Origin: Chloroflexi bacterium HGW-Chloroflexi-2
Lineage (GTDB): Bacteria > Chloroflexota > Anaerolineae > Anaerolineales > Anaerolineaceae
Assembly: GCA_002840735.1 (NCBI GenBank)
Contig: PHBY01000018.1
Coordinates: 1-57,625 of the forward strand
Direction: 5' to 3'
Length of the DNA stretch: 57,625 bases
Positions 1 through 4,071 of the stretch are shown one piece after another. The notes under the pieces were generated by a model, which did not search any database, was not told the origin of the DNA, and saw nothing but the letters and a program-made list of their open reading frames with translations. The position numbers and the translations under genes are program-made. Position 1 is the stretch's first letter. Each line of letters opens with the position of its first letter.

Positions 1-75
<75 letters not shown>

Positions 76-114: not shown

Positions 115-490
115 CCAGGTCTCCAGGTTCTGCCACCCTGGCCGATATCCCCAGGTTTTTGGCATCCTGGCGCAGCGCTCCCCATGGTCTGGTGGTCTGG
201 CTTTGGCGCAGGTCTCCAGTTTCTGCCCTCTGGTTGTGATCCCAGGTTTTGGCATCCTGGCGCAGCGCTCCCCATGGTCTGGTGGTCTGGCTTTGGCGCC
301 GGTCTCCAGGTTCTGCCGCCTGGCCTAGATCCCCAGGTTTTGGCATCCTGCCACAGCGTTTCCCATGGTCTGGTGGTTTGGTGGTCTGGCTTTGGCGCAG
401 CTCCCCAGGTTCTCGCCCCCTGGCTGAGGTCTCAGGTTTTTGGCATCCTGGCACAGGTCTCCAGGTCTGGCGCTTTGGTGGTTTTTTCTT
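115..490. repeat. Minisatellite, about 93-bp unit, about four copies
   Basis: Units begin near 118, 211, 301 and 400, with a truncated fifth near 456. Spacings are 93, 90, 99 and 56 bp. The block TTTGGCATCCTGGCGCAG, then CCATGGTCTGGTGG, is nearly identical between the first two units; the 99-bp unit carries an extra 9 bp of GGTGGTTTG type. The plus strand is strikingly poor in A and full of CCAGG and TGG words. Reading frames cross the block on both strands, but none has a ribosome binding site and all follow the repeat period, so I treat it as non-coding. It lies directly upstream of the promoter of the accessory operon and could be an iteron-like or protein-binding array; that is speculation. 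Confidence 0.85.
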
Positions 491-509: not shown

Positions 510-538
510 TTGACTTAATATGTATTCCGCTATATAAT
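510..538 (+). promoter_or_regulatory. Sigma-70-type promoter of the accessory operon
   Basis: The -35 box TTGACT is at 510-515 and the -10 box TATAAT at 533-538, with the ideal 17-bp spacer. A ribosome binding site AAAGGAG and the ATG at 563 follow. The first 20 bases (510-529) recur exactly at 3128-3147 in front of the ribbon-helix-helix gene, so the two units probably share a regulator. Confidence 0.8.
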
Positions 539-562: not shown

Positions 563-1126
563 ATGATAAAAATTCATTTTGGTGGTTCAAGGTCTTTGTC
601 AGATTCTTATATCCCGTTAGTTTCTGATGTCGTTGCTGCTCCCATGCAGTTAGGTTGTTATGTTAATGTCGGTTGTGCCATAGGCGCAGATGAAGCAGTC
701 ATCGAAGCTGCTTTGGGATGGGATCCCTCGCGCTTGTCTGTTTTTGCCCAGTTTTCAGCATCTGGCGAAGGTTCTTTTTCAGGTTCTGCTTATATCCCTG
801 TGATCGCTGCAAAAAAAGAAGGTGCTCAGGTTTCTTTTTTGTCTGGTGGTCCTTTAAACATTCCACTTAAAACCCGTCTTATGCGTCGTTCAAAAATTGC
901 CCTGGCAGGTTGCGCCGGTTCTGTTTTTTTTCTTTCAAAAAGCTTTAGCCCCGGTTCTCTTAAGGTCGCAGCTGAAGCAGTCAAAAAAAATCAAATCGTT
1001 TATGCCTTCCCCTGTGGTTTCTCCGGTTCTCCTGTCCCGCTCCGCTCAGTGTCCGGTTCCTGGCGAGAGTCTCATTTTTTTGGTTTCCCTTGCTTTCAGT
1101 GGTTCACAGGTCAGCCATTATTTTAA
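563..1126 (+). CDS. SLOG/DUF2493-like nucleotide-binding fold protein
   Basis: A 187-residue protein preceded by a good AAAGGAG site. The N-terminus has the GGSR motif (residues 7-10) and a GCAIGAD motif (37-43), the pair expected of the SLOG Rossmann-like fold, in which related proteins bind nucleotides or nucleotide-derived ligands. The C-terminal third is rich in Ser, Gly and Phe and does not resemble a known domain. The gene is the first of the accessory operon. Its codons are T-rich (TCT, GTT, TTT), unlike the A-rich codons of the four genes behind it. SLOG proteins of this kind are common on plasmids and phages; the role here is unknown. The fold call is from motifs only. Confidence 0.6.
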   Translation: MIKIHFGGSRSLSDSYIPLVSDVVAAPMQLGCYVNVGCAIGADEAVIEAALGWDPSRLSVFAQFSASGEGSFSGSAYIPVIAAKKEGAQVSFLSGGPLNIPLKTRLMRRSKIALAGCAGSVFFLSKSFSPGSLKVAAEAVKKNQIVYAFPCGFSGSPVPLRSVSGSWRESHFFGFPCFQWFTGQPLF

Positions 1127-1138
1127 TTCCCCAGTCAT

Positions 1139-1192
1139 CAAGCCGGATGGATCCCAGCCCATCCGGCAAAAAACAAAAAAAGAAAGGAATCC
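1139..1192 (+). promoter_or_regulatory. Hairpin plus RBS leader, copy 1
   Basis: A 9-bp perfect stem (arms 1142-1150 and 1159-1167, 8-nt loop) is followed by an A-rich linker and AAAGGAATCC, with the ATG of the next gene 4 nt further on. The 54-nt block is repeated at 1493-1546 with one base different. The lack of a T-run argues against a terminator; an RNA processing, stability or translation element is more likely. Confidence 0.75.
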
Positions 1193-1196
1193 GATC

Positions 1197-1487
1197 ATGA
1201 CAAATCAAATCCCCCCAACCCTAATCAAGTTTAGAAACAGAAGTAAAAAAAATCAAGAAATTTCTAGTCAGGTTAATCAGGTAATTCAAAAAGCTTACAG
1301 TGATTTTTTCGATGCAATGCCAGAAATTTTAGATCCGGATATAGATCCTTATTTGTCCATGTGTCTGGATGAAGCATGGACGAAGTTATCAAGTCTCCGC
1401 GATATGTTCGATACTGCCGCACACTCCAGAGAAAAGGATTTTTTAGGTTTCGAGCAGATGATGAAAGCATACCAGGAAACAAATTAA
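1197..1487 (+). CDS. Hypothetical 96-aa protein of accessory operon
   Basis: I do not recognise this protein. The ATG at 1197 is preceded by AAAGGAATCC within the repeated leader, which fixes the start although the frame stays open much further upstream into the SLOG gene. The product is 96 residues, hydrophilic, with no signal peptide and a predicted helical character (many Lys, Gln, Glu, Asp). Residues 41-50 are acidic with Pro (ILDPDIDPYL). It sits between two copies of the hairpin leader. The N-terminal Lys/Arg-rich stretch (KFRNRSKKNQ) could contact nucleic acid, but this is not evidence of function. Confidence 0.65.
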   Translation: MTNQIPPTLIKFRNRSKKNQEISSQVNQVIQKAYSDFFDAMPEILDPDIDPYLSMCLDEAWTKLSSLRDMFDTAAHSREKDFLGFEQMMKAYQETN

Positions 1488-1492
1488 AAAAA

Positions 1493-1546
1493 CAAGCCGG
1501 ATGGATCCCAGCCCATCCGGCATAAAACAAAAAAAGAAAGGAATCC
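1493..1546 (+). promoter_or_regulatory. Hairpin plus RBS leader, copy 2
   Basis: A near-exact copy (53 of 54 bases) of the leader at 1139-1192, with stem arms 1496-1504 and 1513-1521, an A-rich linker, AAAGGAATCC and then the ATG at 1551. The duplication of a whole translation-initiation leader suggests that genes in this operon were added as cassettes. Confidence 0.75.
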
Positions 1547-1550
1547 TACC

Positions 1551-1865
1551 ATGTTGAAAGAGATCGAAAGTATAAAAATCCAAGAAGCCATCAGAGATGT
1601 AGAAATAAACCAAGCTTATTATGAACAGGCAAAAATTAAAAGCGCAGCAGCTTGGCATTTCTTTCAGAATTTCGTTGATGAAGATCCCCGCTTTGAAGAC
1701 GCAAACGCGCCAGAGGAGGAAATCGAAGATTTCCGCATGCGATGCGATCAGTATTTATCTTTGGCTTACAAATATGAAGAAGAGATGTATATAGCCCATC
1801 ACGACGTAGACGCAGCAAAAAATAGATTGCTGGCTTTATATGATGAGGAGGAGAAATCAAAATGA
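1551..1865 (+). CDS. Hypothetical acidic helical protein
   Basis: A 104-residue protein started by the second copy of the hairpin/RBS leader. It is strongly acidic and rich in Glu, Ala and Gln, with heptad-like spacing over residues 1-45 and 65-100, so it is probably helical and perhaps a coiled coil. No signal peptide or known motif is visible. Its stop overlaps the next start by 4 nt (ATGA at 1862-1865), so the two are probably translationally coupled. Function unknown; small acidic proteins are frequent in plasmid and phage operons, some as DNA mimics, but nothing specific supports that here. Confidence 0.65.
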   Translation: MLKEIESIKIQEAIRDVEINQAYYEQAKIKSAAAWHFFQNFVDEDPRFEDANAPEEEIEDFRMRCDQYLSLAYKYEEEMYIAHHDVDAAKNRLLALYDEEEKSK

Positions 1866-2191
1866 AACTGAACACAATGTTTCCCCGTAAATACGCCACC
1901 GGCGCAGATTTAAACGGACAAACCGTTAATGTGACGATCGAATCTCTGCATGTTGAGAAGCTCAGCCCTCACCCTGGGCAACCACCTATGGACCGTTTTG
2001 TCCTGTATTTCAAAGGAAAGCAAAAAGGAGTGATTTTGTCCCGTACGCTGGCAGAGCAGATCGCCAGCATCCTGCAATCAGATGACACCGATCAATGGAT
2101 TAACCGCACGATCTCGCTTTATCCCCAGCAAATGAACGTAGCCGGAAAAAGCCGAATCGCGATCAGAGCCAAAAAAGCCGCTCAGGTTTAA
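1862..2191 (+). CDS. Phage/plasmid-type conserved hypothetical protein
   Basis: A 109-residue protein whose ATG overlaps the previous stop by 4 nt, with GAGGAG upstream. The pattern (MFPRKY near the start, then ADLNG, VTIESL, a run ending VLYFKGKQKGVILSRT, DDTDQWINR, ISLYP) resembles a family I recall from phage and plasmid replication or recombination regions, whose function is not established. There is no signal peptide, and the C-terminus is basic (RIAIRAKKAAQV). The downstream neighbour is an ArdC-like protein, which fits a mobile-element operon. Family recall is from memory and needs a profile search. Confidence 0.6.
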   Translation: MKLNTMFPRKYATGADLNGQTVNVTIESLHVEKLSPHPGQPPMDRFVLYFKGKQKGVILSRTLAEQIASILQSDDTDQWINRTISLYPQQMNVAGKSRIAIRAKKAAQV

Positions 2192-2200
2192 CCACATTAA

Positions 2201-2250
2201 GCCAGCTGGTGCCCCCAGCTCACCAGCTGGCATCTTCAAATAAAAAGGAA
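2201..2250 (+). promoter_or_regulatory. Hairpin plus RBS leader, variant 3
   Basis: A perfect 11-bp stem (2201-2211 with 2221-2231, 9-nt loop) is followed by an A-rich linker and AAAGGAATCC, then the ATG at 2259. The hairpin sequence differs from copies 1 and 2 but the layout is the same: GC stem, A-rich linker, AAAGGAATCC, ATG. Conserved architecture with changed stem sequence suggests the structure is what matters. Confidence 0.6.
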
Positions 2251-2258
2251 TCCCAGCA

Positions 2259-3083
2259 ATGAAAACCCCAGCAGAGAAAACAACAAAGCAAAACAGCCCG
2301 GCAGAATTAAATAAAAAACTGACCGCATTTATTAAAGACCTGGCAACAGAGACCGACGCCGCGAGGATCTCGGATGTCATGCAGAATTATTTAAAATTCT
2401 GTGCATCCTTCCATAGATACAGTGTATCAAACCAATTCTTTATTTACCTGGCCAAGCCCGACGCCACCCATGTGGCCGGTTTTCATGATTGGTTGAAGAA
2501 AAAGCGCTACGTGAAAAAAGGAGAGAAAGGGATCCCGATTCTTGCTCCCTGTCCAAGAACTTTCAAAGATGAAAACGACAAGATCATTGCCCAGGAGCTG
2601 AGATTTAAAACCGTTTATGTTTTCGATATCTCCCAAACCGATGGAGAACCCTTACCCGAAGCCCCTGAATGGAAAAGTTTTGAGAAATCCCCAGAGCTTG
2701 AAGACATGCTGATCAATTATGCAAAATCCCTTTATATCAAGGTCGATATCAAAGACTTAAGCAGCCATGGAGGAGCCCAGGGATACAGCTCAGGAGGAGA
2801 AATCGCCCTCGACCCGACCGCCGGCACCAAGACCCTGATTCATGAAATCGCGCATGAACTTCTCCACCAAAATGTAAAATCCAAACTCAGACCACGCAAA
2901 GAAGTTGAATTAGAAGCCGAAGCCGTCGCCTATGTTGTGGCCAGAGCCCTGGAAATCAAAAACCTGCAATCTCCCAACTATCTGGCGCTTTGGGACGCAG
3001 ACGGAAAGAAAATCCTGGACCGCTTAGACCTGATCCGAGAAACAGCAAATAAGATCCTGACCGCAATCTTTCCAGTAAAGTAG
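2259..3083 (+). CDS. ArdC-like antirestriction protein with ImmA/IrrE metallopeptidase domain
   Basis: A 274-residue protein with two parts. Residues about 15-115 match the ArdC N-terminal (DUF1738) pattern: a YSVSNQFFIYLA stretch, ATHVAGFHDW, then VKKGEKGIPILAPC. Family members bind single-stranded DNA and protect incoming plasmids from restriction. Residues about 150-270 form a zinc metallopeptidase domain with HEIAH at 195-199 and a later EAEAVAYVVARAL helix, as in ImmA/IrrE proteases that cleave repressors. It is the last gene of the accessory operon, followed by a strong terminator. The length is shorter than plasmid ArdC proteins, and its target is unknown. Confidence 0.8.
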   Translation: MKTPAEKTTKQNSPAELNKKLTAFIKDLATETDAARISDVMQNYLKFCASFHRYSVSNQFFIYLAKPDATHVAGFHDWLKKKRYVKKGEKGIPILAPCPRTFKDENDKIIAQELRFKTVYVFDISQTDGEPLPEAPEWKSFEKSPELEDMLINYAKSLYIKVDIKDLSSHGGAQGYSSGGEIALDPTAGTKTLIHEIAHELLHQNVKSKLRPRKEVELEAEAVAYVVARALEIKNLQSPNYLALWDADGKKILDRLDLIRETANKILTAIFPVK

Positions 3084-3093
3084 ATAGATCGCC

Positions 3094-3124
3094 AAAAGCA
3101 GCCAGGTCAAATCTGGCTGCTTTT
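3094..3124 (+). terminator. Intrinsic terminator of accessory operon
   Basis: A 12-bp perfect stem (3094-3105 with 3113-3124, 7-nt loop) whose 3' arm ends in TTTT. It separates the ArdC-like gene from the next promoter, which starts 3 nt later. Confidence 0.85.
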
Positions 3125-3127
3125 CAA

Positions 3128-3156
3128 TTGACTTAATATGTATTCCGTAATATTCT
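3128..3156 (+). promoter_or_regulatory. Promoter sharing a 20-bp element with position 510
   Basis: The -35 box TTGACT is at 3128-3133 and TATTCT at 3151-3156, with a 17-bp spacer. Bases 3128-3147 are identical to 510-529, and the identity ends just before the -10 region. Identity limited to the -35 and spacer suggests a shared operator rather than a recent promoter duplication. The gene it drives encodes a probable DNA-binding protein, so autoregulation is plausible. Confidence 0.65.
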
Positions 3157-3189
3157 TTATAATATTTTGAAGAATAAGGACTAAATCAA

Positions 3190-3618
3190 ATGGCGATTGA
3201 ACTAAATAGAATTGTTAAAGGTCACCGGTATGACACAAGTATTTCAATTTTATTAGCATCCGATGAACTGATTTCGAACAAAACACAAACTACTACATAT
3301 CTTTACCGCACAAGAAGGGGATTATTCTTTTTGGTTCGTCAATTTAATGATAGTTCCAAAAAACCAAAAATTTTACCACTGGAGAAAGATCAAGCTATTG
3401 AACAATTTAACAAGCTTCCAGAGAAATTTCAAGACTTCACCGAAGCATTTTCGGATCCGGAAGATATCCATGGTAGACCCCCATTATTTGAAAAACCTTT
3501 GATCAAAACATCATTGTGGCTTAAGGAAGAAATGTTAGAATGGCTTAAGAAACAACCCGGCACCATGAGTGAGGTAATAAGAAAACTGATCCAAGACGCC
3601 ATGGACAAGAACCCTTGA
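3190..3618 (+). CDS. Probable ribbon-helix-helix regulator with N-terminal domain of unknown function
   Basis: A 142-residue protein read from its own promoter. The N-terminal half (RYDTSISILLASDE, then TYLYRTRRGLFFLV, later ILPLEKDQAIEQF) resembles a short domain I associate with uncharacterised plasmid and ICE proteins. The C-terminal 40 residues have the beta-strand plus two-helix spacing of ribbon-helix-helix proteins: IKTSLWLKEEMLEWLKKQ, then TMSEVIRKLIQDAM. That would make it a DNA-binding regulator or antitoxin-like protein. The upstream spacer is AT-rich and the start has an AAGGA site about 9 nt before the ATG. Its promoter shares a 20-bp element with the neighbouring operon. No toxin partner is visible. 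Confidence 0.6.
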   Translation: MAIELNRIVKGHRYDTSISILLASDELISNKTQTTTYLYRTRRGLFFLVRQFNDSSKKPKILPLEKDQAIEQFNKLPEKFQDFTEAFSDPEDIHGRPPLFEKPLIKTSLWLKEEMLEWLKKQPGTMSEVIRKLIQDAMDKNP

Positions 3619-3946
3619 CCCAACCGCTCGCCTGGCTGGACGCTCCGCCCGCCCTTCGGGACGACCTCCGCGCCAGCCAACCTCGCTGCTAGTTGTTCCA
3701 TTCGTTTCTATTCGTTTCCTTAAAAAATGATTACAAAAGAGAGAATCAGTATATAATCTAACCAGTCAAACAATGCCACACATTATTATTGATATTTTTA
3801 TCTAAATGTACTAAATATTTGCCAAAAAAAAAATTAAAAATCCGAACCTTAACAAAACAATACATAAGAAACTAAGCAACAATGAAGCAGTGTAAGGATT
3901 TTTAATTAAGATTTTTCTGAATCTTAAAATTTTGACAATCACTTGG
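3619..3946. other. Intergenic region with a GC-rich structured island
   Basis: No gene seen. Bases 3619-3690 are GC-rich inside AT-rich surroundings and can fold: TGGCTGG (3633-3639) pairs with CCAGCCA (3673-3679) and encloses CCCTTCGGG (3652-3660). There is no T-run. The remainder (3700-3946) is very AT-rich with a C8A9-like homopolymer region near 3823-3835 and nothing else I can name. This is the right boundary of the accessory module. Confidence 0.5.
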
Positions 3947-3997: not shown

Positions 3998-4069
3998 GGG
4001 CGCGTAGCTCAATGGTAGAGCAGTGGCCTTTTAAGCCATTGGTTCAGGGTTCGAGCCCCTGCGCGCTCA
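3998..4069 (+). tRNA. tRNA-Lys (anticodon UUU)
   Basis: A full cloverleaf can be drawn: acceptor GGGCGCG with CGCGCTC (one G-U pair), D-stem GCTC/GAGC, anticodon stem GTGGC/GCCAT around loop CTTTTAA, and T-arm CAGGG-TTCGAGC-CCCTG. The anticodon is TTT. The discriminator is A and the CCA end is not encoded. The gene is 72 nt, with no intron. It stands alone between the accessory module and pepF. Confidence 0.96.
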
Positions 4070-4071
4070 CT

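What the first reader, a model, noticed from the sequence alone, without database searches (positions are those of the whole stretch)
563..3618. Compact module: SLOG protein, unknowns, ArdC-like metallopeptidase and RHH regulator
SLOG-fold proteins sense or make nucleotide signals, ArdC-like domains counter restriction, and ImmA/IrrE peptidases cleave repressors. Their occurrence together with two or three unknown small proteins and no integrase or replication gene suggests a self-contained defence or anti-defence cassette rather than a plasmid remnant. The ArdC domain fused to the peptidase could protect entry while cutting a regulator.
Basis: inference. Interest (0 to 1): 0.7.

Follow-up and report, generated by a model that had tools for sequence, protein, structure and literature searches.

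The report
Phage-like element's att-end gene block
The gene cluster is not a stand-alone cassette but the end of a phage-like mobile element that is inserted in a lysine tRNA gene of a Chloroflexota bacterium; it probably helps the element's DNA survive and establish itself in a new host.

Summary
The six genes are real and lie in the stated order (563-3618); all six recur in order in a relative, G007 (gene 6 shortened). They are not a self-contained cassette. The window is one contig. A 41-bp direct repeat, the 5' half of tRNA-Lys through the anticodon, occurs at window 3998-4038 and at C34:418154-418194 of the same genome. Inside the C34 copy lie a tyrosine integrase, SpoVS, unknown genes and an endolysin; capsid, portal and terminase homologues are on contig C27. 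G007 shows the same plan in one contig: 83 kb between 46-bp repeats in tRNA-Met. So the block is the att end of a phage-like integrated element. A few IMG/VR contigs carry relatives of genes 1 and 4 with a related terminase, one in a circular genome of about 18.7 kb. Gene 1 is a DprA-type SLOG protein, gene 4 probably an OB-fold protein, gene 5 a canonical ArdC, not a new fusion. Genes 1 and 6 share a 20-bp promoter motif found nowhere else in the genome; G007 has another shared motif at both places. Best reading: an early, repressor-controlled counter-restriction and DNA-establishment block. No function was tested. The ribbon-helix-helix call for gene 6 stays unconfirmed.

The parts
116..470 (.). 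GC-rich tandem repeat, period 90, 3.8 copies, upstream of p1; a diverged counterpart lies upstream of p1 in G007
   Evidence: weak similarity to L031 12131-12253; RNA fold no better than shuffles
510..529 (+). 20-bp motif in the promoter region of p1 (TTGACT at 510-515, TATAAT at 533-538 by eye), shared with the p6 promoter region
   Evidence: only 2 sites with up to 3 mismatches in the genome, reversed-pattern control 0
563..1126 (+). p1: SLOG protein of the DprA type, 187 aa
1142..1167 (+). intergenic hairpin (GCCGGATGG...CCATCCGGC); near copy at 1496-1521
   Evidence: 61-nt repeat D5 at 1139 and 1493, 95%; hairpin read from the sequence
1197..1487 (+). p2: unknown, 96 aa
   Evidence: 65% in G007; no significant family
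1551..1865 (+). p3: unknown, 104 aa; overlaps the p4 start by 4 bp
   Evidence: 37% in G007, 35% in G005
1862..2191 (+). p4: predicted OB-fold protein, 109 aa (phrog_21613, E 3.4e-8)
2259..3083 (+). p5: ArdC, ssDNA-binding-type N domain plus HExxH zincin C domain, 274 aa
3094..3124 (+). perfect 12-bp inverted repeat ending in TTTT after p5, terminator-like
   Evidence: I14
3128..3147 (+). second copy of the 20-bp promoter motif, upstream of p6
   Evidence: also in G006 (L036 499-524)
3190..3618 (+). p6: putative RHH-type regulator, 142 aa (G007 keeps only a 71-aa form)
   Evidence: RHH by sequence pattern only, no profile support
3619..3719 (.). conserved GC-rich tail with inverted repeat; homology to G006 and G007 ends here
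   Evidence: 98-100% over about 100 bp to L031 and L036
3844..3862 (+). 19-bp att-proximal motif (3 mismatches to the consensus), possible recombinase/excisionase arm site or leader element
3998..4038 (+). att repeat (right end): 41 bp identical to C34:418154-418194
3998..4070 (+). tRNA-Lys(TTT), restored by the element; 3' part is native

Best explanation
The cluster is the att-proximal early block of a temperate-phage-like element integrated in the anticodon region of tRNA-Lys (shown by the att repeat, the split host locus and the integrase next to the other repeat). In the circular form p6 would lie close to the integrase gene (inferred). p1-p5 probably form one operon and p6 a second unit; both start at promoters with the same motif, so p6 most likely represses both and itself (inferred). 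When the element enters a new cell without p6, the block would be expressed at once: ArdC (p5) shields the DNA from type I-like restriction, while the DprA-type SLOG protein (p1) and the OB-fold protein (p4) bind or process single-stranded stretches of its DNA (inferred from homology and fold). Once p6 accumulates the block is shut off (inferred).
For: Att: exact 41-bp repeat in G000 and 46-bp repeat in G007, each holding the 5' half of a tRNA gene with the anticodon. Host locus split: in 6 of 7 relatives in the genus (not G002) a kinase gene lies within about 1 kb upstream of tRNA-Lys, and in G000 it lies beside the other att copy on C34. Element genes inside the repeats: tyrosine integrase, SpoVS and GH25 on C34; capsid, portal and TerL homologues on C27; same order in G007. 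Virus contigs: p1 relatives in 5 and p4 relatives in 7 of 80 terminase-bearing IMG/VR loci, all 5 with p1 also with p4; one is circular by a 123-bp terminal repeat. Regulation. Folds. ArdC R388: ssDNA-binding, antirestriction against HsdRMS, protease not needed (PMC7213743 abstract and passages).
Against: G000's element is spread over three contigs; that C27 belongs to it is inferred from gene order in G007 and G005. No expression, excision or restriction data. RHH in p6 has no profile support. The p1 and p4 models come from 3-row alignments and only one of five models of each was confident; p4's best match has only Z 5.9. In the 80 virus loci p5 is present in only 1 and p2, p3, p6 in 0; the 6 loci with the closest terminases (75-95%) show no p1 or p4 in the 5-15 kb held. 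So the full six-gene set is limited to a few genomes. In G005 no p6 match was found and an excisionase-like gene stands on that side. TerL itself has only a partial, weak profile match (phrog_5713, E 6.8e-6, residues 388-460; no Pfam match), backed by tblastn to an annotated phage terminase.
Confidence: 0.6

Rival explanations
1. A stand-alone defence or anti-defence cassette that jumps between sites by itself.
For: Compact, conserved order; sharp homology edge at 3717-3719 in two relatives; lies beside tRNA-Lys in G000 and beside tRNA-Met in G007, G006 and G005.
Against: Att repeats enclose far more DNA (83,277 bp in G007) with integrase and phage genes; p1 and p4 relatives sit in virus contigs; no PADLOC match for 6 of 6 proteins.
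Confidence: 0.05
2. Leading-region (establishment) block of a conjugative or mobilizable element.
For: ArdC is typical of plasmids: 1574 of 72,556 plasmid records match p5 at E up to 0.01, against 10 of 50,697 phage records; p1 relatives at 32-34% on two Methylococcaceae plasmids; p4 model resembles PrgE of pCF10.
Against: No relaxase PF03432 and no coupling protein PF02534 in 3 of 3 genomes (other relaxase families not searched); phage structural genes between the att repeats.
Confidence: 0.1
3. The zincin domain of p5 is an ImmA-like antirepressor that cleaves p6 on DNA damage and so induces the element.
For: HExxH and glutamate residues intact; p5 and p6 are neighbours with motif-linked promoters; the ArdC paper likens the domain to IrrE, which cleaves DdrO (passage).
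Against: In R388 ArdC the protease activity is not needed for antirestriction and no substrate was proven; in 7 of the 10 ArdC genomes no p6 match was found by tblastn in the stretch held (G067's is only 3.5 kb).
Confidence: 0.15
4. Decayed prophage remnant whose block is no longer functional.
For: G000's element is large and cargo-laden; p6 is short in G007; G016 has two short p4 relatives near tRNA-Met, one with a stop.
Against: Intact frames for p1-p5 in G000 and G007, very high conservation of p4 (91%), intact integrase frames at 65% identity.
Confidence: 0.15

Closest known systems
ArdC of plasmid R388 (PMC7213743: abstract and passages read)
   Same: ArdC-N domain plus HExxH/E metalloprotease domain
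   Different: Here in a phage-like element and shorter; neighbours p1 and p4 differ; no activity tested; no PDB chain matched p5 by phmmer
DprA / SLOG Rossmann fold (PDB 4ljk, 3maj; ShosA 8zva)
   Same: Fold (VIA Z 13.5-14.9), invariant GGSR near the N end (that DprA has such a motif is recalled), Pfam DprA domain sub-threshold
   Different: Core domain only, 187 aa; 13-20% identity; far below the dprA equivalog cut-off
PrgE, OB-fold protein of pCF10 (PMC11137577: listing and start of abstract seen)
   Same: Best fold match of p4 in both comparisons; small size; mobile-element origin
   Different: 12-14% identity, VIA Z 5.9, so kinship is not shown
tRNA-integrated islands and prophages (Islander, PMC4383910: listing and start of abstract seen)
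   Same: Split tRNA gene restored by the element, tyrosine integrase at one end
   Different: Repeat is the 5' half of the tRNA gene, so the element supplies the tRNA promoter and 5' half
Bacillus phage vB_BboS-125 and Thermus phage Riverbug terminases
   Same: The only named phages matched by the element's TerL among 50,697 phage records
   Different: 33% and 27% identity only

Membership tests
ArdC antirestriction protein | ArdC-N (PF08401) domain | tested here: met
   38.4 bits against cut-off 22.6; phrog_7245 E 7.5e-13
ArdC antirestriction protein | HExxH plus glutamate-helix metal ligands | tested here: met
   invariant in the 6 aligned proteins, window included; definition
ArdC antirestriction protein | protects incoming DNA from restriction | not testable with these tools
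   needs a transfer or infection assay
DprA/SLOG superfamily (p1) | Rossmann-like SLOG fold | tested here: met
   Foldseek E 2.4e-5 to 4ljk, VIA Z 14.9, rmsd 3.5, 167 aligned to 3maj; model from 3 sequences
DprA proper | passes the dprA equivalog model | tested here: not met
   TIGR00732 11.8 bits, cut-off 191
OB-fold ssDNA-binding protein (p4) | five-stranded OB barrel | tested here: inconclusive
   beta3-alpha-beta2 order, pLDDT 73; best match PrgE E 1.8e-3, Z 5.9
RHH/CopG repressor (p6) | RHH domain profile | tested here: inconclusive
   no family above cut-off, no useful PDB match; strand-helix-helix pattern read by eye
tRNA-integrated temperate-phage-like element | direct att repeats in a tRNA gene with an integrase beside one | tested here: met
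   (G000 and G007)
tRNA-integrated temperate-phage-like element | terminase, portal and capsid genes | tested here: met
   profiles hit G005's portal and capsid well and its TerL weakly; G000 and G007 homologues by tblastn
tRNA-integrated temperate-phage-like element | makes infectious particles | not testable with these tools
   needs induction and microscopy; I recognised no tape-measure gene when reading the ORF lists
conjugative element | relaxase and coupling protein | tested here: not met
   PF03432 and PF02534: 0 of 3 genomes each; controls ring in 1 and 5 of 14; other relaxase families not searched
known defence system | PADLOC model match | tested here: not met
   0 of 6 proteins at E up to 0.1

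The most novel reading that the evidence does not exclude
A DprA-type SLOG protein (p1) and an OB-fold protein (p4) form the conserved core of a new phage establishment module: they guard and hand over single-stranded DNA of the entering or integrating element, with ArdC added in some members. This family of phage-like elements (one circular relative is only about 19 kb) would use a plasmid-like, ssDNA-centred entry programme and serve as a vehicle for defence cargo.
Probability: 0.25. Interest if true: 0.75.

Novelty: new variant of a known kind. Interest (0 to 1): 0.45.

Why it matters
It turns an apparently isolated 'defence cassette' into a mapped part of a family of integrated phage-like elements of Anaerolineaceae that carry restriction and defence-like genes between a packaging gene block and a conserved, probably counter-restriction block. 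It gives exact att sites, a two-promoter regulon with an operator that differs between relatives, and a small circular relative, all directly testable. It also warns that 'no integrase nearby' at a contig edge is no evidence for a stand-alone cassette.

Tried and rejected
A structured RNA in the 90-bp repeats was rejected: the fold is weaker than in shuffles (z +2.0), and Rfam finds only the tRNA (a U4 hit at E 0.25 is far below its gathering score). An integron-like cassette array (repeated GC-rich stretches between genes in L031 and L032) was considered and dropped after the att repeats were found; no attC model was run. PDB sequence searches for p5 and p6 gave nothing useful. p1 and p4 scans of IMG/VR with their own conserved words found no relative, p1 had no match in phages, and tblastn of p4 against plasmids and phages found none; the relatives appeared only through the terminase, so the earlier IMG/VR negatives reflect narrow word patterns. 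The p1 class search found 3 of 396 genomes, own included (no hit from G005 or G007 was listed, so they were probably not among the genomes drawn); the two others (G232, G351, the latter with a stop inside) are distant and on short contigs and were not used further. Paper searches with nothing close: 0 papers; listings only. Whether these elements are already in print was not tested beyond these searches.

The G005 end was not resolved: its tRNA-Met has a 25-bp exact copy of its middle part about 150 bp upstream, and the module lies on the 3' side of the tRNA there.
Full report
What is there. The window is the whole contig C18 of a 4.1-Mb, 40-contig genome; two relatives in the same genus (G007, G005) are an Anaerolineaceae and a Chloroflexi metagenome genome by record title. 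Six same-strand ORFs stand at the stated place. p5 is ArdC, p1 has the DprA/SLOG fold, and p2, p3 and p6 have no significant family. None of the six matches a PADLOC defence model.

Conservation. In G007 the six genes lie in the same order (p1 82, p2 65, p3 37, p4 91, p5 84% identity, then a 71-aa p6 whose last 48 residues match at 65%); in G005 p1, p3, p4 and p5 are present; G006 has the end of p5 (99%) and p6 (73%) at a contig start. In 6 of the 10 genomes with p5 (of 101 searched) p1 and p4 were not found in the stretch held (20 kb each, 3.5 kb in G067); G016, one of these, has two p4 relatives on another contig near tRNA-Met. In G016 and G049 integrase-like and excisionase-like ORFs, read by eye, lie between ArdC and a tRNA-Arg.

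The site. The tRNA-Lys at 3998-4070 has a kinase gene within about 1 kb upstream in 6 of 7 genus relatives (not in G002). In G000 the kinase is on C34, followed by a tRNA-Lys promoter and the first 41 bases of tRNA-Lys, identical to window 3998-4038. So the tRNA gene is split and the element supplies a new promoter and 5' half. G007 has a 46-bp repeat at C3:246884-246929 and C3:330115-330160 in tRNA-Met, 83,277 bp end to end.

The element. Beside the C34 repeat lie a tyrosine integrase (PF00589, 84.0 bits), a 267-aa protein, SpoVS (PF04232), some unknown ORFs (496 and 443 aa without a PHROG match) and a GH25 endolysin. C27 starts with a holin-like ORF (by eye), then homologues of G005's capsid, portal and TerL and a TerS-like ORF (phrog_1889, E 0.0017), and later holds HsdR, HsdS and HsdM. 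G007 has the same genes in the same order up to its integrase, which is 65% identical; its cargo holds a C5 methylase, a ResIII/GmrSD/N6-N4-methylase set, and DrmB- and NERD-helicase-like proteins. In G005 the structural genes, the cargo (an NsnA-like DUF262 protein among it) and the module lie on one contig. The sum of the three G000 pieces is 49,147 bp if C27 is wholly inside. No PF03432 relaxase or PF02534 coupling protein was found in G000, G005 or G007.

Viruses. TerL finds 125 relatives in IMG/VR, of which the best 80 were kept. In these 80 loci p1 occurs in 5 (42-50% identity), p4 in 7 (32-61%), p5 in 1, the integrase in 1, and p2, p3, p6 and SpoVS in 0. All 5 loci with p1 have p4 within about 3 kb; their terminases are 59-64% identical to the query. 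The six loci with the closest terminases (75-95%) show neither p1 nor p4, but only 5-15 kb of each is held. L144 is 18,849 bp with a 123-bp exact terminal repeat, so circular, and holds p1, p4, an integrase, terminase, portal and capsid. Fragments that read as tRNA 3' halves lie near an integrase-like or excisionase-like gene in the 4 contigs that I read for this, of 7 with p1 or p4 (L144, L168, L151, L164; by eye; ARAGORN finds no whole tRNA there).

Regulation. p1 and p6 promoter regions share 20 identical bases (0 of 2000 shuffles reach this; G007: 12 bases, 2 of 2000, with a stretch that was cut inside its palindrome). With up to 3 mismatches the 20-mer has exactly these 2 sites in the genome, and the reversed pattern has none. 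In G007 both places carry ATATAACGTTATAT (three copies, with up to one mismatch none elsewhere in the 11 stretches scanned). The motif changed together at both promoters, which points to a shared regulator; p6 is the obvious candidate but its fold is unproven.

Function. ArdC of R388 binds ssDNA and overcomes HsdRMS restriction, and does not need its protease activity for this (PMC7213743). p1's model is close to DprA and ShosA, p4's to PrgE, weakly. Three of the five probably co-transcribed proteins thus point to single-stranded DNA. I conclude that the block is an early establishment and counter-restriction block of a phage-like element; the location is well supported (about 0.9), the mechanism is inference (about 0.5).

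Limits. G000's element is not in one contig; fold models rest on three sequences, with one confident model of five each; the kinship between p4 and PrgE is not shown; the RHH identity of p6 is open; nothing was tested at the bench.

Noticed in passing
window 3844-3862; L031 9061; L036 1246; L032 11770; L144 4140; L168 146; L164 6943: A 19-bp motif (GAACCTTAACAACCGAATA, up to 3 mismatches) lies within about 300 bp of the att/tRNA sequence in 7 loci; 8 hits in 513 kb (the eighth, L032 15742, is not near a tRNA) against a mean of 0.15 in shuffles. Perhaps a recombinase arm site or a boxA-like leader element.
   Followed up: partly
L144 1-18849 (IMGVR_UViG_3300009083_000133): Circular phage-like genome of about 18.7 kb with integrase, p1, p4, terminase, portal and capsid, and no tape-measure gene that I recognised.
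   Followed up: partly
L223 8655-17062 (G000:C21) and counterparts in G001-G005 and G007: A second terminase-portal-capsid cluster in 7 of 8 genus genomes, between the same flanking genes in G000, G001 and G007; possibly a gene-transfer-agent-like or long-resident prophage block.
   Followed up: partly
L118 14202-14462; L121 9480-9740: A SpoVS-family protein stands near the integrase in both elements.
   Followed up: no
L031 and L032, between genes: Families of GC-rich repeats separate single genes around the module, like a cassette array.
   Followed up: no
window 1-75: The contig starts with an almost pure poly-A run, probably an assembly edge inside the element.
   Followed up: no
L079 and L080, downstream of tRNA-Lys: G006 and G007 hold about 12-13 kb of genes (sugar-transport- and glucanase-like by eye) between tRNA-Lys and the M3 peptidase gene, absent in G000 and G001.
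   Followed up: no
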